Assembly: GCA_024691125.1 (NCBI GenBank)
Contig: JAILNV010000165.1
Span: 1-36,645 of the forward strand
Direction: 5' to 3'
Length of the DNA: 36,645 nucleotides
Source of the DNA: Lachnospiraceae bacterium
Lineage (GTDB): Bacteria > Bacillota > Clostridia > Lachnospirales > Lachnospiraceae
Below the pieces are notes generated by a model. That model made no database searches. It worked only from the letters and a program-made list of their open reading frames with translations, and was not told the DNA's origin. A program made the translations under genes and the position numbers. Positions 1-8,028 of the stretch are shown piece after piece. The stretch's first letter is position 1; every line of letters starts with the position of its first letter.

Positions 1-602
1 GTTATTGTTGAAGTATGGATACGGCCGCCTGATTCAGTCTCCGGAACACGCTGCACACGATGAACGCCGCTCTCATATTTCATCACAGAATAAGCACCCT
101 GGCCTGTTATCATAAAGGTCACGCTCTTCATTCCGCCGATACCTATTTCTTCGACCTCCATGGTCTCAACCTTCCATCTTCTTCCCTCGGCATAGTGAAC
201 ATACATCCTGTATATTTCCGCTGCAAACAGCGCAGCCTCATCACCACCTGCTCCGGCTCTTATCTCAACGATCACATTCTTTTCATCATTGGGATCCTTG
301 GGAAGCAACAGGATCTTAAGCTTCTCCTCAAGAGTCTCGACATTCTTCTTCGCAGACGCCAGCTCTTCCTTAAGCATCTCCTTCATATCCTCATCGGACT
401 CCTCGGAGAGCATTGCCAGCGAATCCTCTATATCCTGTTTATTCTTTTTATATTCCTTATATGCCTCAACTATGGGAGCCAGATCGCTCTGCTCCTTCAT
501 AAGAGCCCTGAACCGCTTCTGGTCATTAGCCACCCCGGGTTCGTTCAATTCATTCATTATATCCTCATATCTTAATATGATATCTTCAAGCTTATCAAAC
601 AT
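1..602 (-). CDS. prfA: Peptide chain release factor 1 (RF1), N-terminal part, cut by window edge
   Basis: RF1 recognises UAA and UAG stop codons in the ribosomal A site and triggers release of the finished protein. About 200 residues are visible from the ATG at 602. The N-terminal coiled region is followed by the release-factor core start [10 protein letters not shown] (about residues 117-126) and the segment [19 protein letters not shown] (about 181-199). Within that, PET at 187-189 occupies the PxT stop-codon recognition position of RF1. The catalytic GGQ loop lies beyond the window, so the gene is incomplete here because of the edge, not because it is broken. Its ribosome site GAGGTAG lies over the last codons of prmC, with only a few bases between the genes, so the two are translationally coupled. 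PrmC is the enzyme that methylates the GGQ glutamine of RF1, which fits the pairing. Confidence 0.96.
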
Positions 603-606
603 TTCA

Positions 607-1467
607 CTACCTCATATTTATCGGCCGTCTTGCCTTAACCACCCTGTCATTTCCCGAATAATCCTTTACTGTCTCAATATCCCTGTATCCGTTTTTCTTA
701 AAAAGATCTGTCACAGCCTCGGCCTGGTCGTAACCAATCTCAAATAAGATACAGCCGCCCGGGATCAGATGCTCATTCGCCCCGTCGATTATCCTTCTGT
801 AAAAATCGAGCCCGTCCGTTCCTCCATCGAGCGCTTTTAATGGTTCATGATCCCTGACCTCTTCCATAAGCGTCGGGATCACATCGCTTCTTATGTATGG
901 CGGATTGGATACTATGGCATCAAACTTCGTCTCATACTCATTAATATTATGTAAACCTTCGTACAGGTCACCCTTACAAAATCTCACATACACCTTATTC
1001 AGGTCTGCATTTCTGCCGGCTACCTCAAGTGCTTCTTCCGAAATATCGGTTCCCACTGCGTCGATATCATTCTTATACCCTGCGATGCTGATCATCACAC
1101 AGCCGCTTCCCGTACACAGATCAAGAACCTTCATTCCGTCATTTATCTCTGTAAGAGCTTCTTCAACAAGGCATTCGGTATCCTGACGGGGTATCAGGAC
1201 ACTATCGTTAACAATAAAATCAAACCCCATAAACTCCTGATGGCCGGTAATATGCTGAAGAGGGATATGTTTCTTTCTTTTCTCTATCAGACTTCTGTAA
1301 GCATCAATACTGTCATTGTCAACAGTTCTGTCTCCATTAAGAAGAATATAGCTTCTGTCAGCCTTAAGTACATGCTCAAGTATCAGCACTGAATCAATAT
1401 CCGCATCTCTTATTCCGCTTTCCGTCAGTTCATTCTTTCCTTCGCGTCTTAAATCATTTACTGTCAT
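607..1467 (-). CDS. prmC: Release factor glutamine methyltransferase PrmC
   Basis: PrmC (HemK) uses S-adenosylmethionine to methylate the glutamine of the GGQ motif in release factors, which raises termination efficiency. The protein has 286 residues from ATG 1467, the usual family length. It has an N-terminal helical domain with PLQHITG (about 69-75), the SAM-binding loop DLCTGSGC (about 116-123) and the catalytic NPPY at about 188-191. Longer starts exist: ATG at 1485 and TTG at 1509. The TTG lies in the T-tract of the terminator of the upstream small gene, and family N-termini start near MTVNDL, so 1467 is preferred. The ribosome site there is weak (GGTAGG). It precedes prfA with almost no gap. 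The gap to the upstream terminator is only about 40 bases, so its own promoter is not obvious. Confidence 0.95.
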
Positions 1468-1507
1468 TATGCCTACCGGTGCCATTACATATATACCAAC
1501 AAAATAC

Positions 1508-1547
1508 AAAAATCACCCCGGTTACACCCATTGTGCCAAACCGAGGT
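1508..1547 (-). terminator. Intrinsic terminator of the small GG-leader peptide gene
   Basis: On the minus strand ACCTCGGTT pairs with AACCGGGGT (9 bp with one G-T pair) around a 15-base loop, followed by G-A-TTTTT at 1508-1512. It starts 23 bases after the peptide stop codon, so the peptide is probably made from its own short transcript. Confidence 0.7.
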
Positions 1548-1569
1548 ATTTAATGCTTATTATTTACAG

Positions 1570-1788
1570 CTATTTTGCAAGTCTTCTTGATCTCAGCCAT
1601 TCTTCCTGCTGTTTTCTTGCATATTCATCAGCTTCCTGCTTCTTTCTTGCTTCCTCTTCCCACTGACGCTGCAGCTGCTCCTGCAGCTTCTTCTGGTATT
1701 CAATAGACCAATTATTTGATGCACCGCCGTTTACATCTTTAAGCTCTTCCTCTGTCAGCTTAGCCGTACTCATTTCTTTGTTATCCAT
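1570..1788 (-). CDS. Small peptide precursor with double-glycine leader and charged helical core
   Basis: No named family is recognised. The 72-residue product starts with a typical double-glycine leader: residues 11-22 read LTEEELKDVNGG. This matches the LxxEELxxVxGG pattern that C39-peptidase ABC transporters cleave in class II bacteriocins, pheromones and some RiPP precursors. The predicted core is residues 23-72. It has no cysteine, three tryptophans (27, 43, 64), many Glu, Gln, Lys and Arg, and looks like one long amphipathic or coiled-coil helix. The start is well supported by AAAGGAG eight bases before the ATG. It has its own terminator (1508-1547) and sits between DUF1385 and prmC, which are commonly close neighbours in related bacteria. 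No transporter, immunity protein or modifying enzyme lies nearby. Secretion as a signalling or antimicrobial peptide is inferred from the leader only. Confidence 0.75.
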   Translation of the reverse strand: MDNKEMSTAKLTEEELKDVNGGASNNWSIEYQKKLQEQLQRQWEEEARKKQEADEYARKQQEEWLRSRRLAK

Positions 1789-1918
1789 GACTCTGTCTCC
1801 TTTCGCTATATATCATGAGTTTCTTTTATTTTCTATTTATTTATACGCTATACTTTCTTTTCTGGCATATATAATTATTCAGAGCAGCGCATTTATCCTG
1901 AAATCCTACTCGCCGGGC

Positions 1919-2875
1919 TTAATATTCCATGCCGAACTCTCGCTGAAGATATTCTCTCCAGTCAAATACCGCATCTACAGCTACGATCGCAACCTCTATC
2001 ATATCATCATCCGGTTCCCTTGTAGTCAGCTTCTGAAGCATAAGTCCCGGAGCCGACAAAATCCTGATGAAAATATTATCGGTTTTTCCGGCCAATCTTA
2101 TAATCTCATATGATATTCCGGCTATCACAGGTATAAGAAGCACTCTGGCAACTACCCTCATTACAGGATCATCGACCCTGATGAAGACAAACAGAACCAC
2201 TGAAACAAATACGACAAAGAAAAGGAAGCTTGTTCCGCATCTCTTATGCTGTCGTGAACTCATAGCCACATTATCTATCGTCAGCGGCAGGCCGCTTTCC
2301 AGACAGTTAATGCATTTATGCTCTGCTCCGTGATACATAAACACACGCTTTATATCGTTCATACACGATATGGCAACAAGATACAGTACAAAAATCGCTA
2401 TTCTGATAACACCCTCCAGAATTGCTATTATTGTATCCGATACTATCCATCTTCTGATAAACTGTGATAAAAAATACGGCAGAAGCATGAACAGCCCCAC
2501 TGCGAACACGATGGAAATAATAACCGTAATGGCCGACACAATGTTGGACGCCGCACCGCTTACTTCCTTTTTCTGTCCTTCATCTGTACCGGAAGAACCC
2601 ACCGGCTCATCTTCTTCGTAAAAACGGGCCGAGTAATTAAGCGTCCTTGTTCCCAGTATCAGCGAATCAATGAAATTGAACACTCCTCTTACAAAAGGTA
2701 TATTATTAAGGCTCTTCACCGGTGCAAAAGAATCATACTCCTCAAGAGCAACATTGATCTGACCGTCAGGTTGTCTTACTGCTACGGAATATCTGTCCTT
2801 ATTCTTCATCATTATTCCTTCAATTACAGCCTGTCCTCCTATACCGGAATAATGATCCTTCCTTCTTTTCTTCAT
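1919..2875 (-). CDS. DUF1385 family membrane protein (YqhQ-like)
   Basis: A conserved membrane protein of unknown biochemical role. It has 318 residues with the family signatures GGQAVIEGIMM (13-23), YHGAEHKC (181-188) and HKRCGTSF (210-217). About four hydrophobic segments are seen, near 112-138, 148-172, 214-233 and 239-259. Conserved His and Cys residues around 182-213 could bind a metal, but that is inference. In many Clostridia it stands between rpmE and prmC, as here. The ATG at 2875 follows GAGGT at five bases. The rpmE terminator ends only about 17 bases upstream, so it is likely expressed by read-through or from a promoter inside rpmE. Confidence 0.92.
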   Translation of the reverse strand: MKKRRKDHYSGIGGQAVIEGIMMKNKDRYSVAVRQPDGQINVALEEYDSFAPVKSLNNIPFVRGVFNFIDSLILGTRTLNYSARFYEEDEPVGSSGTDEGQKKEVSGAASNIVSAITVIISIVFAVGLFMLLPYFLSQFIRRWIVSDTIIAILEGVIRIAIFVLYLVAISCMNDIKRVFMYHGAEHKCINCLESGLPLTIDNVAMSSRQHKRCGTSFLFFVVFVSVVLFVFIRVDDPVMRVVARVLLIPVIAGISYEIIRLAGKTDNIFIRILSAPGLMLQKLTTREPDDDMIEVAIVAVDAVFDWREYLQREFGMEY

Positions 2876-2892
2876 TTGATACCTCTATACTC

Positions 2893-2918
2893 AAAAAAGC
2901 CGAGGTATTACCTCGGCT
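2893..2918 (-). terminator. Intrinsic terminator after rpmE
   Basis: On the minus strand AGCCGAGGT and ACCTCGGCT form a perfect 9-bp stem with a three-base loop, followed by six T (2893-2898, the first overlapping the stem). It lies just after the rpmE stop and immediately before the DUF1385 ribosome site, so it also sets how much of the transcript continues into DUF1385. Confidence 0.9.
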
Positions 2919-2931
2919 CTTTAAAACCATG

Positions 2932-3138
2932 CTATTTACTTGTCACGCCGTATTTCTTATTGAACTTCTCAATACGTCCGTCCACTCTTGCGCTCTTCTG
3001 CTGTCCTGTATAGAACGAATGGCACTTGGAACAGATCTCAACGTGAATCTCGGGCTTTGTAGAACCTGTAACAAAAGTATTCCCACAGTTGCATGTTACA
3101 GTTGCCTGCTGATAATTAGGATGTATTCCTTCTCTCAT
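2932..3138 (-). CDS. rpmE: 50S ribosomal protein L31, zinc-binding type
   Basis: Ribosomal protein L31 bridges the large and small subunits. It has 68 residues starting MREGIHPNY, a typical L31 N-terminus. The four cysteines C16, C18, C36 and C39 make this the zinc-containing (C+) form, which zinc-starved cells commonly replace with a cysteine-free paralogue. No paralogue is in this window. The ATG follows AGGTGA four bases away. It is preceded by a clear promoter (3233-3261) and a leader of roughly 90 bases, and followed by a strong terminator, so the main transcript is monocistronic. Confidence 0.97.
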
Positions 3139-3232
3139 GATCTCACCTCGCTTAAATTCCTTGTATACTGTAATCCCGGTTCATATCTCCCCGGAAATCA
3201 ATGCATATCAGTTTTCTCAACGCACGTGTATT

Positions 3233-3261
3233 ATAATATCATGCTCTGAATGTTTGTGCAA
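3233..3261 (-). promoter_or_regulatory. Housekeeping-type promoter of rpmE
   Basis: Minus strand: TTGCAC (3256-3261), 17 bases, TATTAT (3233-3238). A second -10 reading, TATAAT at 3230-3235, overlaps it at 20-base spacing. Initiation is expected near 3226, giving a leader of about 90 bases before the ATG at 3138. Confidence 0.65.
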
Positions 3262-3319
3262 GCATTTTCTTTGTAAAGTTACATCAAACTTATGATAAAT
3301 ATACTCTGTCAATGAATCT

Positions 3320-4816
3320 TTATATAAATCTGATCTTCTTGACCATCTGGACAAACTCACGGTTGCTCCTGGTACGCACGAACATATCCAGAACCTTCTC
3401 CACCGCTTCTTCGGGCTTAAGACCGTTAAATGCCTTACGTATAACATTTATGGCTTCCAGCTCTTCTTCATCAAGAAGCAGATCTTCCCTTCGTGTTCCT
3501 GATTTGGGTATGTCTATTGCAGGGAATACTCTGCGTTCAGAGAGCTTGCGGTCCAGAACCATCTCCATGTTGCCTGTTCCCTTGAATTCCTCATACACCA
3601 CGTCATCCATTTTGCTCCCTGTCTCGATAAGAGCCGTAGCCAATATGGTAAGGCTTCCACCTTCTCTCATATTTCTTGCAGCGCCGAAGAATCTCTTAGG
3701 CATGTGGAGCGCCGCAGGATCAAGGCCTCCCGACAATGTACGTCCGCTTGGCGGAACTGTCATATTATATGCCCGTGTCAGTCTTGTTATGGAATCAAGC
3801 AGGATGATAACATCCTCTCCTGCCTCCACCAGTCTCTTCGCACGCTCTATTACCATCTCGGAGACACGTTTGTGATGGTCCGGAAGTTCATCGAACGTGG
3901 AATAGATAACCTCAACCTTAGGTCCCTCAATAGCCTCCTTTATATCCGTCACTTCTTCCGGGCGTTCATCAATGAGCAGGATAATAAGATGCATCTCCGG
4001 ATTATTCCGCTTAACCGATCTTGCAACATCCTTAAGCAATGTCGTCTTACCGGCTTTGGGAGGTGAAACGATCATACCTCTCTGACCCTTTCCGACCGGT
4101 GACATAAGATCCATTATCCTCATGGCCACCGTACCACCCGGTACTTCAAGCCTGAGTCTCTCATCCGGGAATACAGGAGTCAGATCCTCGAAATTCTTCC
4201 TCTTGGCATGTTCCGCAGGAGTAAGTCCGTTTATGGTCTTAACAAACAAAAGAGCGCCAAACTTGTCAGTCTGTGTCTTTATCCTTGTATTTCCGGTAAT
4301 TATATCTCCTGTTTTAAGAGAGAATCTTCTTATCTGGCTGGGTGCCACATATACATCATTCTCACCGGGAAGATAATTCTCGCTTCTTATAAACCCATAT
4401 CCATCGGACAGTACCTCAAGAATACCGCTGGCTTCTATTCCACTGTCAAGATTCTTCTTCTCCTCGGAAATATCAACATCACCCGCGGTACCCGGTTCAT
4501 CCGGCTGAGCCTCCTTATTCTCAGCTGTCTGGACAGCTTCGGCTTCAGGTTCATTTCTCTTCTTTTCCGGCGCAGGATGTGCGGCTTTTACACTTCCCGT
4601 TTCAGCTTTCGCATTACCGGCTTCTGTTTTTGCACTGACGGCTTCCGCTTCCGATCCTGCTGCTTCTGCGGCAGCGGCATCTTCCTCATCCTTTTTGCAC
4701 ATGGCGTCCACCACATCGGCCTTCTTCATTCCTGTTATACCCTTAATACCACGCGCTTTAGCAAGATCCTTAAGTACAGCCAGTCCAAGCGTTTCGTATT
4801 TTGCTCTGTTGCTCAT
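3320..4816 (-). CDS. rho: Transcription termination factor Rho
   Basis: Rho is a ring-shaped hexameric RNA helicase that ends transcription of untranslated RNA. The product has 498 residues from ATG 4816, which has AGGAG six bases upstream; an open frame back to 4912 lacks such a site and any Rho-like sequence. Domains: N-terminal helix bundle (1-40); a low-complexity Ala/Glu/Lys linker (about 42-125), common in clostridial Rho; cold-shock-like RNA-binding fold (about 128-200, with GYGFIRS); and the RecA-type ATPase with Walker A SPPKAGKT (251-258), Walker B LLIDE (280-284) and the RLTRAYN/PPSGRTLSGG RNA-gripping loops. No intrinsic terminator is visible after the gene before the rpmE promoter. 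The leader carries an inverted-repeat structure (4858-4908). Confidence 0.97.
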   Translation of the reverse strand: MSNRAKYETLGLAVLKDLAKARGIKGITGMKKADVVDAMCKKDEEDAAAAEAAGSEAEAVSAKTEAGNAKAETGSVKAAHPAPEKKRNEPEAEAVQTAENKEAQPDEPGTAGDVDISEEKKNLDSGIEASGILEVLSDGYGFIRSENYLPGENDVYVAPSQIRRFSLKTGDIITGNTRIKTQTDKFGALLFVKTINGLTPAEHAKRKNFEDLTPVFPDERLRLEVPGGTVAMRIMDLMSPVGKGQRGMIVSPPKAGKTTLLKDVARSVKRNNPEMHLIILLIDERPEEVTDIKEAIEGPKVEVIYSTFDELPDHHKRVSEMVIERAKRLVEAGEDVIILLDSITRLTRAYNMTVPPSGRTLSGGLDPAALHMPKRFFGAARNMREGGSLTILATALIETGSKMDDVVYEEFKGTGNMEMVLDRKLSERRVFPAIDIPKSGTRREDLLLDEEELEAINVIRKAFNGLKPEEAVEKVLDMFVRTRSNREFVQMVKKIRFI

Positions 4817-4857
4817 ATATTTCTCCTGTAAACCTGTTAATAGATACTTTTTCATTA

Positions 4858-4908
4858 TCGGGATATAACACGAAGTGTGTCGATGTGCCGATCTGATAAC
4901 AATCCCGA
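4858..4908 (-). other. Nested inverted repeats in the rho leader
   Basis: TCGGGAT (4858-4864) is the exact inverse complement of ATCCCGA (4902-4908). Inside lies a small hairpin, ACAC-GAA-GTGT (4868-4878). The element ends about 40 bases before the rho start codon and could fold in the 5' leader. rho genes are often autoregulated, but a role here is inference. Confidence 0.4.
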
Positions 4909-4992
4909 ACAATATACAGTCTGTTCTGATTCCTGCTCCTGATTGTTACGTCATAATTTAACCATATTACATCCCAAAAAGCAAGTAAAACA

Positions 4993-7452
4993 TTATATCT
5001 TCTTAAGTTTGGCAAATCCGGCAAACATTTTCTTTATGCCAAAGCCTTTAAAATCCACCGTTACCTCATAATCACGCGGGGCTTTTTCAATCTTCTTAAC
5101 TACCCCTTCGCCGAACTTAACATGTCTTACAGTATCACCGACCCCATAATCAGGCTCATCATGGGCACCGATATCCTTGCCGAGAGCAACTGCCGGCCTG
5201 CTGCCGGATCTGACAAAACCATTGTTAAGCCTGATGCCGCCGGTACCCTTTCTGCTGTTCTGCCTCTCTCCCGCCAATACCGAAACCTCATTGGCGGTTT
5301 TATTGGCCGATGCGATATACGGTTTGGCATACGCATTTCTGTTGGCAGGCGATGTGGCGGACGGTCTTGCAGATATTCCTGCCTTCGAGCTAATATCTGA
5401 CATATCAGAAAATGAGCCTTCGGAACCGGAGCCTGCATATGATTTCCTTACAAATACTTCCTTCGTATACCCGTCATCTTCCGGCAGAGACTTTCTGCCG
5501 AAGCTGCCCGAACCCCTCATCTCAAGAAGTTCGGCGGGAATTTCCCTTACAAACCTTGACGGGGCATTAAACTGTGTTTCCCCTCTTACCATCCTCTGTC
5601 TTGCACAGGTTATGGTAAGCTCATCCATCGCTCTTGTAATGCCGACATAACACAGCCTTCTCTCCTCCTCAAGATCGGACGGATCGTCGGATGTCATGCT
5701 CATGTATGAAGGGAACAGCCCCTCCTCAAGACCCGTAAGATAAACATGAGGGAACTCAAGGCCCTTCGCACTGTGAAGAGTCATAAGCAGCACACGGTTG
5801 CTGTCTGCCGATACACTGTCAATATCGGCCACAAGCGCCACCTCTTCAAGGAAGCCGGAAAGAGTGATGTCCTCATCATTGTCCTGTTCCTCTTCATAGG
5901 CAACCACCTTGTTTATAAGCTCATCGATGTTTTCCTTTCTCTGCTCGGCATCCTCTTTGTCGGCCGCCTCCATCTTCTCTATGTATTCCGTTGTATCAAG
6001 CACATCCTTGACAAGCTCTTCAAGTGAAAGAAACTCCTGCTTGCTTCTGAATACCCTTATCATGTTTACGAAGGCTTCAAGCTTTCCTGTGCCTCTTCCT
6101 ATCGACGGGATCTTATCCGCTTTCTTAAGCGCCTCATAGAAGGTTATATCGTTTTCATTGGCATATTCCTGTACACGGTTTATCGTGGTCGCTCCGATCC
6201 CGCGTGCGGGTACATTGATTATACGTTTAACCGCAACATCATCCCTGGCGTTGTCGATCGTCTTAAGATATGCCAGTATATCCTTGATCTCACGTCTTGA
6301 ATAGAAGTTAACGCCACCCACCACATCATAGGGTATGCCGCTCATTATGAGCTGTTCTTCTATAAGACGCGCCTGCGCATTCGTCCTGTACAGCACAGCC
6401 TGTTCGCTGTAATCGTATTTCCCTTCCCTCTTTTCCTTAATTATCGAATCAACAACATATTCCGCTTCTTCATAAGCCGAATTACACTGCCTGAAATGTA
6501 TCCTCTCTCCATCGCCTTTATCCGTCCACAGTGACTTGTCCTTACGGCCTCTGTTATTGCTTATAACGGCATTGGCCGCATCAAGGATTGACTGCGTGGA
6601 ACGGTAATTCTGCTCAAGCTTTATGACTCTTGCTTCCTTATATACTTTCTCAAAATCAAGGATATTCCTTATGTTGGCTCCCCTGAACTTGTAAATGGAC
6701 TGATCGTCGTCACCTACCACACAGATATTTCTGTACTTTGACGCAAGCAGTCTTATGAATTCAAACTGAACCGTATTTGTATCCTGATATTCATCGACCA
6801 TAATATATCTGAACCGTTCCTGATATGACTCAAGTATATCCGGCCATGCGGTAAACAGCTCTACGGTCTTAAGGAGCAGATCGTCGAAATCAAGAGCGTT
6901 GCTTTTCTTAAGCTCCTTCTCATACTCGGCATATACCTTCGCCACCTGAGCGCTGCCGTAATCCCCCATTGCATCCTTCATAAGCTCCGAGGGTGTGATA
7001 AGCTCCTCCTTGGCATGAGATATGGCTGACATAAACGCCCGCTCGGGCATCTGCTTCGTATCGATCTGAAGCCTCTTTAATATCCCCTTCATCACGGTCT
7101 TCTGATCGTCCGTATCATATATGGTGAAATTATTATCATATCCGATCTTATCGATATATCTTCTCAGTATCCTTACGCAGGTGCTGTGAAAGGTGGCCAC
7201 CCAGATGCTGTCCGAACCGTATCCAACCATATCATCAACCCTCTGTCGCATCTCTCCCGCTGCTTTATTGGTAAAGGTAATGGCCAGTATATTCCACGGA
7301 TTAACTCCGCATTCATCTATAAGATAGGCTATCCTGTTGGTGATCACACGGGTCTTTCCCGATCCCGCGCCCGCAAGGATAAGAAGCGGTCCTTCCGTAT
7401 GAAGCGCCGCTTCCTTCTGTCTGTCATTAAGCATTTCGATCACATTACTCAT
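4993..7452 (-). CDS. pcrA: ATP-dependent DNA helicase PcrA (UvrD family)
   Basis: Superfamily 1A 3'-5' helicase used in nucleotide-excision repair, replication of nicked DNA and clearing of RecA or RNA polymerase. It has 819 residues from ATG 7452. It begins MSNVIEMLNDRQ, with Walker A GAGSGKT at 28-34, Walker B VDEYQDTN, the motif GDDDQSIYKFRG, motif IV NYRST and motif VI CYVGITRA. A disordered Ser/Ala-rich linker leads to the C-terminal Tudor-like domain (GVGDTVRHVKFGEGVV) that contacts RNA polymerase in this family. The frame stays open to 7608, but that ATG lies inside the promoter spacer and the extra residues match no helicase, so it was rejected. The ribosome site GGGGAAAG is moderate. 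YerC upstream is a usual neighbour of pcrA in Firmicutes. Confidence 0.97.
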   Translation of the reverse strand: MSNVIEMLNDRQKEAALHTEGPLLILAGAGSGKTRVITNRIAYLIDECGVNPWNILAITFTNKAAGEMRQRVDDMVGYGSDSIWVATFHSTCVRILRRYIDKIGYDNNFTIYDTDDQKTVMKGILKRLQIDTKQMPERAFMSAISHAKEELITPSELMKDAMGDYGSAQVAKVYAEYEKELKKSNALDFDDLLLKTVELFTAWPDILESYQERFRYIMVDEYQDTNTVQFEFIRLLASKYRNICVVGDDDQSIYKFRGANIRNILDFEKVYKEARVIKLEQNYRSTQSILDAANAVISNNRGRKDKSLWTDKGDGERIHFRQCNSAYEEAEYVVDSIIKEKREGKYDYSEQAVLYRTNAQARLIEEQLIMSGIPYDVVGGVNFYSRREIKDILAYLKTIDNARDDVAVKRIINVPARGIGATTINRVQEYANENDITFYEALKKADKIPSIGRGTGKLEAFVNMIRVFRSKQEFLSLEELVKDVLDTTEYIEKMEAADKEDAEQRKENIDELINKVVAYEEEQDNDEDITLSGFLEEVALVADIDSVSADSNRVLLMTLHSAKGLEFPHVYLTGLEEGLFPSYMSMTSDDPSDLEEERRLCYVGITRAMDELTITCARQRMVRGETQFNAPSRFVREIPAELLEMRGSGSFGRKSLPEDDGYTKEVFVRKSYAGSGSEGSFSDMSDISSKAGISARPSATSPANRNAYAKPYIASANKTANEVSVLAGERQNSRKGTGGIRLNNGFVRSGSRPAVALGKDIGAHDEPDYGVGDTVRHVKFGEGVVKKIEKAPRDYEVTVDFKGFGIKKMFAGFAKLKKI

Positions 7453-7485
7453 ATCTTTCCCCGTTCTTCTGATTAATTCTCTACG

Positions 7486-7558
7486 TTCCGAAGATATGCT
7501 TCCGAAAGTAAGACCTCCGAAAGCGGGACTTTGCGAAAAGCGGAATTTAATTTCGCAA
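7486..7558 (-). repeat. Repeated CGAAAG-type motif and hairpin in the pcrA leader
   Basis: Three near copies of YTCCGAA(A)G at 7486-7493, 7500-7508 and 7515-7523, plus TTGCGAAAAG at 7531, are spaced 14, 15 and 16 bases apart. The last one also pairs with TTTCGCAA (7551-7558) to give a perfect 8-bp inverted repeat with a 12-base loop. All lie within the predicted 5' leader of pcrA, which is roughly 125 bases long. Confidence 0.5.
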
Positions 7559-7583
7559 TCCGGGCAGCGAAACGAGCTATGTA

Positions 7584-7613
7584 AGTATATCATAATTTCT
7601 GCGCCCATGTAAA
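7584..7613 (-). promoter_or_regulatory. Promoter of pcrA
   Basis: Minus strand: TTTACA (7608-7613), 18 bases, TATACT (7584-7589), with start expected near 7577. Its presence downstream of the more distal ATG at 7608 supports the pcrA start at 7452. No Gram-positive LexA box was recognised near it. Confidence 0.65.
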
Positions 7614-7645
7614 GAACAAATGTTTGCCATTTCGTCCGTACAGTA

Positions 7646-7670
7646 AAAGCAGGTGCTATGCACCTGCTTT
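7646..7670 (-). terminator. Terminator of the cheC-yerC transcript
   Basis: AAAGCAGGTGC and GCACCTGCTTT form a perfect 11-bp stem with a three-base loop. On the minus strand it continues into a short T-run (TTTTA). It stands between the yerC stop and the pcrA promoter. Confidence 0.8.
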
Positions 7671-7693
7671 ATTTATACTTATCATTCTTACTT

Positions 7694-7987
7694 TTATTCC
7701 TGTTCCTTCATTCTTTCAAGGACCATATCATATCCGTCATTTCCGTAATTAAGCGATCTGTTTACACGGCTTATGGTTGCTGTGGAAGCTCCCGTCTTCT
7801 CCGCTATCTCCACATAGGTCTTCTTATCCCGCAGCATTGTTGCCACTTCAAAACGCTGTGACAAAGATATGATCTCATTGATCGTACAAATATCTTCAAA
7901 AAAAATGTAACATTCTTCCTTGTCTCGAAGCTGCAGTATCGCATCAAACAGATGATCCACCGCTTCGGTCCTTAACTTCGGATTCAT
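7694..7987 (-). CDS. yerC: YerC/YecD family TrpR-related DNA-binding protein
   Basis: A 97-residue protein of the TrpR-like YerC family, small dimeric helix-turn-helix proteins of poorly known target. The N-terminal helices (LRTEAVDHLFDAILQL) are followed by a helix-turn-helix around residues 56-80 (TYVEIAEKTGASTATISRV). No tryptophan-binding pocket can be judged from sequence alone. It sits between cheC and pcrA, and in Bacillus the same family lies close to pcrA, which supports the name. It follows cheC by 41 bases and shares its terminator. The ribosome site is weak (GAGAGTAG). Its autoregulatory or pcrA-directed role is not known. Confidence 0.88.
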   Translation of the reverse strand: MNPKLRTEAVDHLFDAILQLRDKEECYIFFEDICTINEIISLSQRFEVATMLRDKKTYVEIAEKTGASTATISRVNRSLNYGNDGYDMVLERMKEQE

Positions 7988-8028
7988 TTACCGCTACTCT
8001 CTTTCACGTTAATATTCGGAAAACTGAC

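What the first reader, a model, noticed from the sequence alone, without database searches (positions are those of the whole stretch)
1508..1788. Solo double-glycine-leader peptide with a charged helical core inside a housekeeping cluster
The leader LTEEELKDVNGG is close to the pattern cut by C39-peptidase exporters. The 50-residue core has no Cys, no GxxxG, and is almost all Glu/Gln/Lys/Arg with three Trp. That does not resemble class II bacteriocins or known pheromones. The gene has a strong ribosome site and its own terminator and is wedged between DUF1385 and prmC, with no exporter nearby. It may be a secreted peptide of a new type that uses an exporter encoded elsewhere.
Basis: partly seen in the sequence, partly recalled or inferred. 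Interest (0 to 1): 0.72.

Follow-up and report, generated by a model that had tools for sequence, protein, structure and literature searches.

The report
Scattered co-regulated secreted double-glycine peptides
A small gene that looked like a lone oddity in a gut bacterium is most likely one of many scattered genes for exported peptides, which share an export tag and a dedicated on-switch but carry very different payloads.

Summary
Window 1570-1788 (-) encodes a 72-residue precursor with a double-glycine leader and a charged core predicted to be one long helix. It has a good ribosome site and a terminator conserved in its one known relative; dN/dS is about 0.14. It sits between two genes that abut or overlap in all 28 other congeneric genomes whose locus was fetched.

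The guess of an exporter elsewhere is supported. The assembly holds two C39 domains, both in NHLP-type exporters on other contigs; one is followed by two more double-glycine genes.

The gene is not solo. This genome has at least eight such genes. The leader is expanded in the genus: 33 of 37 genomes, against 6 of 149 from other genera of the family. Many carry a shared promoter, TTGCCA-N15-CGTATAAA. Searching the genus for its -10 part alone leads to a double-glycine gene at 32 of 44 distinct sites, against 21 of 6000 random positions.

Best reading: a dispersed, co-regulated, NHLP-exported peptide repertoire with diversified cores; this gene carries the most charged core of those compared. 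Secretion, cleavage and function are inferred, not shown.

The parts
1570..1788 (-). double-glycine precursor gene, 72 aa (leader 1-22, core 23-72)
   Evidence: helix 23-71 predicted
1723..1788 (-). 22-residue leader MDNKEMSTAKLTEEELKDVNGG, presumed cut after GG
   Evidence: leader model (E 1.1e-9; it is one of the model's training rows); cleavage inferred
1573..1722 (-). 50-residue charged core, predicted single helix
1797..1803 (-). ribosome site AAAGGAG, 8 bases before ATG
   Evidence: read directly; conserved in G009
1831..1847 (-). class A -10 element CGTATAAATAAATAGAA
1863..1868 (-). class A -35 element ATGCCA (TTGCCA in G009 and in the consensus)
1500..1548 (-). intrinsic terminator: hairpin 1514-1548, then a T-rich tract
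1919..2875 (-). DUF1385 protein, upstream neighbour
607..1509 (-). prmC, downstream neighbour (ORF as listed; the true start is probably the ATG that ends at 1468-1470)

Best explanation
The gene makes a 72-residue precursor. Its 22-residue leader is recognised and cut after GG by a C39-type NHLP exporter encoded elsewhere, most likely the one on contig C107, and the 50-residue, mostly helical, near-neutral core leaves the cell, probably unmodified. The gene belongs to a dispersed, co-regulated set: at least eight double-glycine genes on seven contigs of this genome. Six have a class A promoter (TTGCCA-N15-CGTATAAA or close), one has another element (class B, TGTGAC direct repeats), and one lies directly behind a class A gene. 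Cores differ greatly while leader, presumed export route and promoter are shared. The core is too polar to be a usual pore-forming bacteriocin; I favour an extracellular signal or a peptide acting on surface or matrix, as BriC and VP1 do in pneumococci. Shown here: gene, leader, exporters, promoter class, conservation. Inferred: export, cleavage site, choice of exporter, co-expression, function. The confidence given is for 'exported double-glycine peptide belonging to a dispersed, co-regulated set'; the signalling or surface role alone I put at about 0.4.
For: Leader and core conserved in the relative, dN/dS 0.14. Two NHLP exporters: TIGR03796 at 915.3 and 891.0 bits over a cut-off of 853.3; partners match TIGR03797 at 718.8 (over 709.4) and 707.9 (just under). 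Two double-glycine genes directly follow the C107 exporter; a like pair follows an exporter fragment in G012, and near-identical ones lie about 4 kb from a C39 domain in G009, so C107 is unlikely to be a foreign contig. Leader model: 55 places at E<=0.001 in 37 genus genomes, 10 of them its training rows, where chance gives about 0.04; 33 of 37 genus genomes at E<=0.01 against 6 of 149 from other genera. Class A: CGTATAA before 39 of 95 double-glycine genes against 1.0 expected. Reverse test: 46 sites in 37 genomes, 44 distinct, 32 followed by a double-glycine gene against 21 of 6000 random positions; one more of the 44 is such a gene when read in a copy not cut by a contig end. Of the 27 distinct sites not used to find the motif, 15; of the 11 of these with GCCA at -35, 9, the other two being that cut gene and a degraded one. 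In four exporter loci (G000 C107, G009 C53, G022 C3, G036 C239) a site lies 4.0-4.5 kb downstream of the C39 domain on the same strand.
Against: 12 of 44 promoter sites have no double-glycine gene by the regex, several of them inside open frames. The genus-wide site count (46) is hardly above that of the reversed pattern (43); the reversed pattern has GC for CG and is a poor control, but the -10 pattern alone is not enriched by that measure. 36 of 95 double-glycine genes have neither promoter class. G003 has a good leader match (2.8e-4) but no NHLP exporter that I could see. No double-glycine gene met the regex in the 19 kb read around the second exporter. The leader model was trained on genus sequences, so its rarity elsewhere is partly built in. 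The factor that reads class A was not identified. Nothing shows that the core leaves the cell or what it does.
Confidence: 0.8

Rival explanations
1. It is a bacteriocin or other antagonistic peptide: exported by the same route, it kills or inhibits relatives, perhaps through a receptor, and immunity is encoded elsewhere.
For: The leader scores just below the class IIb model (20.0 against 21.5 bits); double-glycine leaders are typical of class II bacteriocins; presence in few species fits arms-race turnover.
Against: The core has no GxxxG, no Cys, GRAVY -1.99 and near-zero net charge; no partner or immunity gene between DUF1385 and prmC; PF10439 11.8 against 27.1 bits; core under purifying selection between the two species.
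Confidence: 0.3
2. The core is a modified RiPP: a maturation enzyme elsewhere in the genome modifies it before export.
For: NHLP exporters often go with modifying enzymes (PMC2887384, passages seen); an NRPS-like adenylation protein lies in the C107 exporter locus.
Against: No maturation enzyme seen among the ORFs read in window 1-8000 or the eight exporter-locus proteins scanned; the core has no Cys and few Ser/Thr. Not searched genome-wide.
Confidence: 0.08
3. It is not exported: the GG is incidental and the gene makes an intracellular coiled-coil peptide that binds a partner, perhaps linked to translation through its neighbours.
For: A charged helix is a common coiled-coil form; neighbours are housekeeping genes.
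Against: The leader belongs to a genus-wide set; the promoter is shared with double-glycine genes at other loci; the neighbour pair does without it in 28 of 28 other genomes.
Confidence: 0.07
4. The shared upstream element is only a strong housekeeping promoter and not the mark of a regulon.
For: TTGCCA-N17-TATAAA is close to the ordinary sigma-70 form; some sites precede other genes, such as C211 in this genome; the site count hardly exceeds the reversed control.
Against: In the own genome 4 of 5 matches of the -10 pattern precede double-glycine genes; genus-wide 32 of 44 do, against 0.35% at random positions, and 9 of 11 held-out sites with GCCA at -35.
Confidence: 0.12

Closest known systems
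Pneumococcal double-glycine peptides BriC and VP1 (PMC7595303, passages seen)
   Same: Double-glycine precursors; BriC is induced through a regulator shared with other double-glycine genes and uses the ComAB exporter, which also serves others; linked to biofilm rather than killing.
   Different: The exporter here is the NHLP type with two ABC proteins; the set here has many core families across a rumen Lachnospiraceae genus and another promoter; no sequence relation of the core was found.
NHLP/Nif11 precursors and their three-gene export system (TIGR03793, TIGR03798; TIGR03794, TIGR03796, TIGR03797; PMC2887384, passages seen)
   Same: The exporters of this genome are of that kind.
   Different: The peptide has a short double-glycine leader and matches neither the NHLP nor the Nif11 precursor model; no TOMM or LanM enzyme among the exporter-locus proteins scanned.
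Class IIb bacteriocins, lactobin A/cerein 7B family (TIGR03949)
   Same: The leader resembles theirs (20.0 bits over residues 10-25).
   Different: Below the cut-off of 21.5; no GxxxG; no partner peptide beside it; polar core.
Bacteriocins of the Hungate1000 rumen collection (PMC13289728, passages seen)
   Same: Rumen bacteria with double-glycine class II candidates.
   Different: The passages seen deal with biosynthetic gene clusters; scattered single genes with a shared promoter are not mentioned in them.

Membership tests
C39-exported double-glycine peptides | short N-terminal leader with hydrophobic residues near -12, -7, -4 and GG at -2/-1 | tested here: met
C39-exported double-glycine peptides | C39-peptidase ABC exporter in the same genome | tested here: met
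   two
C39-exported double-glycine peptides | cleavage after GG and secretion | not testable with these tools
   needs biochemistry
NHLP/Nif11 precursor peptides (TIGR03793, TIGR03798) | match to the precursor models | tested here: not met
   not among the 11 NCBIfam matches at E<=10
NHLP/Nif11 precursor peptides (TIGR03793, TIGR03798) | NHLP-type exporter in the genome | tested here: met
Class IIb bacteriocin (TIGR03949) | score over the curated cut-off | tested here: not met
   20.0 against 21.5 bits, leader only
Class IIb bacteriocin (TIGR03949) | GxxxG in the core and an adjacent partner peptide | tested here: not met
   no GxxxG in the core (read directly); no second leader peptide between DUF1385 and prmC
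Class IIc bacteriocin (PF10439) | score over the gathering cut-off | tested here: not met
   11.8 against 27.1 bits
Modified RiPP | maturation enzyme encoded nearby or in the exporter locus | tested here: inconclusive
   none among the ORFs of window 1-8000 or eight exporter-locus proteins; not searched genome-wide
BriC/VP1-like co-regulated double-glycine set | several unlinked double-glycine genes with a shared promoter element | tested here: met
   on separate contigs, so true distances are not known
BriC/VP1-like co-regulated double-glycine set | effect on neighbouring cells or on biofilm | not testable with these tools
   needs experiment

The most novel reading that the evidence does not exclude
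In this rumen Lachnospiraceae genus the NHLP exporter is a general outlet for a dispersed peptide secretome: dozens of unmodified double-glycine peptides with unrelated cores (polar helix, zinc-ribbon-like, 'FTDKTG' and 'PWEVID' families), gained and lost gene by gene also at housekeeping loci, switched on together through one of two dedicated promoter elements, and serving communication or surface roles rather than classical killing.
Probability: 0.45. Interest if true: 0.78.

Novelty: new variant of a known kind. Interest (0 to 1): 0.62.

Why it matters
Usual mining for bacteriocins and RiPPs looks for clusters, with precursor, enzyme and exporter side by side. Here the precursors are mostly scattered single genes that such mining would pass over: ten representative double-glycine peptides gave no Pfam match over a cut-off, and of eight scanned against NCBIfam one passed, on a leader model only. 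A shared promoter gives a way to find them without knowing their cores; it led here to further double-glycine genes that were not among those I had translated. If secretion is confirmed, a common group of rumen bacteria exports a large set of undescribed peptides under common control, and the question of what NHLP exporters carry in Lachnospiraceae becomes directly testable.

Tried and rejected
Class II bacteriocin: not filed as such, on TIGR03949 and PF10439 scores, lack of GxxxG and the polar core. Mobile cargo: no relative in viral contigs (9 pattern hits, 0 confirmed) or plasmids (E<=0.01); the phage collection was not searched. Wide spread of the core: the scan of the 84,980-species collection confirmed only the goat-rumen MAG RGIG3585 (52 pattern hits, 1 confirmed; its contig has the same length, 149370, as G009:C69, so I take it to be the same record). 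Of 117 relatives only G009, besides the own genome, gave a credible match; the other 20 genomes with matches had E 0.03-0.76. Seven of these weak hits (six from other genomes, one second hit in the own) were read: none had the core, three had double-glycine leaders. Helix fold search: not done, since a lone helix has no informative neighbours.

Weak points of my own counts. The leader model was trained on genus sequences, so its rarity in other genera is partly built in. Of the list I translated 96 places: the printed rows down to E 0.0086 except G030:C15 (stop inside) and G030:C4 (31-residue frame), plus five weaker ones from G000, G009 and G008 (E 0.039-0.069); further rows were not taken. 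One of the 96 (G008_C3_11142) was mis-mapped by my script and dropped, leaving 95; for G008_C114 the chosen start is probably too far upstream. To these, eight peptides from later calls were added for the clustering of 103 cores. Two of the 46 promoter sites have near-identical contexts to two others and were collapsed, leaving 44. The first form of the leader test missed known genes and gave 25 of 44; I loosened it at one position, required GG itself and a ribosome site, and got 32 of 44, with the random rate measured again for the new form (21 of 6000; 57 of 4000 with the first form). The random positions came from DUF1385 and exporter loci, not from whole genomes. The first look at weak hits read one strand only and was repeated on both. 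In one search the gap is measured from the DUF1385 stop to the first aligned prmC residue, not to an annotated start. Expected motif counts come from first-order Markov shuffles, 30 and 50.

Not in print, as far as searched: in the open PMC library listed no paper, by title and abstract start, on a dispersed double-glycine set or this promoter in Lachnospiraceae; subscription papers are not held, so this is weak evidence. The names BriC, VP1 and rpmE-like labels are as given in the paper or recalled where marked; the likeness of class A to ECF-type promoters is recalled, not tested.

Full report
The gene. Window 1570-1788 (-) reads MDNKEMSTAKLTEEELKDVNGG|ASNNWSIEYQKKLQEQLQRQWEEEARKKQEADEYARKQQEEWLRSRRLAK. 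It has AAAGGAG eight bases before the ATG, and a hairpin followed by a T-rich tract before prmC: -20.6 kcal/mol, z -3.9, 0 of 200 shuffles as good; the relative has the same hairpin at -23.8, 2 of 200 as good. AlphaFold2 on the single sequence gives one helix from 23 to 71, with block mean pLDDT 91-96 over residues 31-70 and about 64 over 21-30. The core is near neutral (K+R 12, D+E 10), has GRAVY -1.99, no Cys and three Trp. Its mean hydrophobic moment is higher than in most shuffles of the same residues (5 of 500 as high for the own core, 29 of 500 for the relative), but its maximum is not remarkable (88 and 107 of 500).

Relative and insertion. One relative is known, in G009, 79% identical and in the same place; I take it to be the goat-rumen Lachnospiraceae MAG RGIG3585, since the contig lengths agree. 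dN is 0.113 and dS 0.818 over the gene, 0.091 and 0.706 over the core. DUF1385 was found in 36 of 37 genus genomes and 30 loci were fetched. In the 28 of these that are neither the own genome nor G009, the first aligned prmC residue lies between overlapping the DUF1385 stop and 35 bases after it. The peptide gene with its own promoter and terminator is thus an insertion into an otherwise tight pair, or was lost from all the others; gain in the ancestor of these two species is simpler.

Exporters. The assembly (89% complete, 4% contaminated, 300 contigs) has two C39 domains, both in NHLP-type exporters: TIGR03796 at 915.3 and 891.0 bits over a cut-off of 853.3, beside partners matching TIGR03797 at 718.8 and 707.9 with a cut-off of 709.4. 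PF03412 is found in 32 of 37 genus genomes. Of the other five, G012, G021 and G028 have exporter-like pieces that start at a contig end (for G012 read), while G003 and G015 show none. G015 also lacks a good leader match (best E 0.70), but G003 has one at 2.8e-4, the one clear exception.

The set. Directly behind the C107 exporter lie two double-glycine genes, one with a CPCG...CPNC core; a like pair stands behind the G012 exporter piece. A leader model of ten sequences finds 55 places at E<=0.001 in 37 genus genomes, ten of them training rows, and 33 of 37 genomes have a match at E<=0.01. Among 150 genomes drawn from as many genera of the family, 7 have one, the own included. At least eight double-glycine genes are in this genome: C266 (this one), C107 (two), C46, C207, C165, C102 and C236. 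103 cores fall into 33 clusters, 24 of them single; the largest are an FTDKTG...WAYTGNPEYY family (21), a DPxxPWEVID family (20) and a CxxC family (19). The window core forms a cluster of two. Ten representatives gave nothing over a Pfam cut-off, and eight gave one NCBIfam match over its cut-off, a leader model.

Promoter. Upstream of 95 such genes CGTATAA occurs in 39, against 1.0 expected. Aligned on it, a TTGCCA-like hexamer ends 15 bases before, and an AT-rich stretch ending in AGAA or the like follows. In the own genome the pattern CGTATAAWNWWWYRKAA has five exact matches: four before double-glycine genes, this gene among them, and one (C211) before a 485-residue protein. The pattern TTGCCAN{14,16}CGTATAA has four (reversed control 2): three before double-glycine genes, two of them not among those I had translated, and one before a 432-residue frame without such a leader. 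Over the genus the first pattern has 46 sites in 17 genomes; of 44 distinct, 32 have a double-glycine gene within 220 bases, against 21 of 6000 random positions; one more (L212) is such a gene when read in its uncut copy L235. Leaving out the 17 sites from which the motif came, 15 of 27 do; with GCCA at -35, 9 of 11, the other two being that cut gene and a degraded one (L221). The reversed-pattern count over the genus, 43, is hardly below 46; it has GC for CG and is a weak control, and the test that matters is what follows the site. A second element, a direct repeat TGTGAC-N5-TGTGAC or close before a -10, is found in 20 of 95 (0.06 expected), never together with class A; 36 of 95 have neither. 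In the own genome the eight genes are accounted for: six class A, one class B (C46), and one second cistron 85 bases behind a class A gene. The CG before the -10 recalls ECF-type promoters (recalled, not tested); the factor is not known.

How it works. The most likely course is transcription from the class A promoter, translation to the precursor, cutting after GG22 by an NHLP exporter (C107 is preferred because its own neighbours have similar leaders, while none was found by regex in 19 kb around C9), and release of an unmodified helix. Steps after transcription are inferred. Function: the polar, near-neutral helix without a partner or immunity gene speaks against a pore former. The nearest working model is the pneumococcal BriC/VP1 kind, double-glycine peptides that share regulators and exporters and act on biofilm (PMC7595303, passages seen). 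I put a signalling or surface role at about 0.4, antagonism at 0.3, the rest open.

Known or new. Double-glycine peptides and NHLP exporters are known. The dispersed, genus-wide set with its own promoters and many core families was not found in print. I call it a new variant of a known kind.

Noticed in passing
upstream of L155 gene (G000:C46:26760) and of genes in G001, G008, G009, G026, G027, G030: A second shared element, TGTGAC direct repeats with an 11-base period before the -10, in 20 of 95 double-glycine genes and never with class A; it suggests a response regulator.
   Followed up: partly
L028:2786-4612 (+) and L029:3486-5597 (-): Both NHLP exporter loci carry a phosphatase resembling SiaA/SpoIIE, the L029 one with an RsbW-like stretch, which suggests a partner-switching control of export or expression.
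   Followed up: no
L028:160-2781 (+): An NRPS-like adenylation protein (TIGR01733, 351.8 bits over 317.4) lies directly before the phosphatase and exporter of C107.
   Followed up: no
L047:738-971 (+) (G008:C38): Another double-glycine gene, with a class B element, sits in the same housekeeping neighbourhood in another species, just before a gene like the window's 68-residue ORF at 2932-3138 (rpmE by recall) and DUF1385.
   Followed up: partly
FTDKTG family, e.g. L119 (G035_C193) and L167 (G036_C400): Several members have a charged E/R/K stretch of varying length directly after GG, in some begun by W-S; the window core could be such a stretch grown long without the following domain.
   Followed up: no
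L221:1500 (G017:C21:23218): A class A promoter before what looks like a degraded double-glycine gene whose start resembles that of G017_C75_8395, a sign of gene turnover.
   Followed up: no
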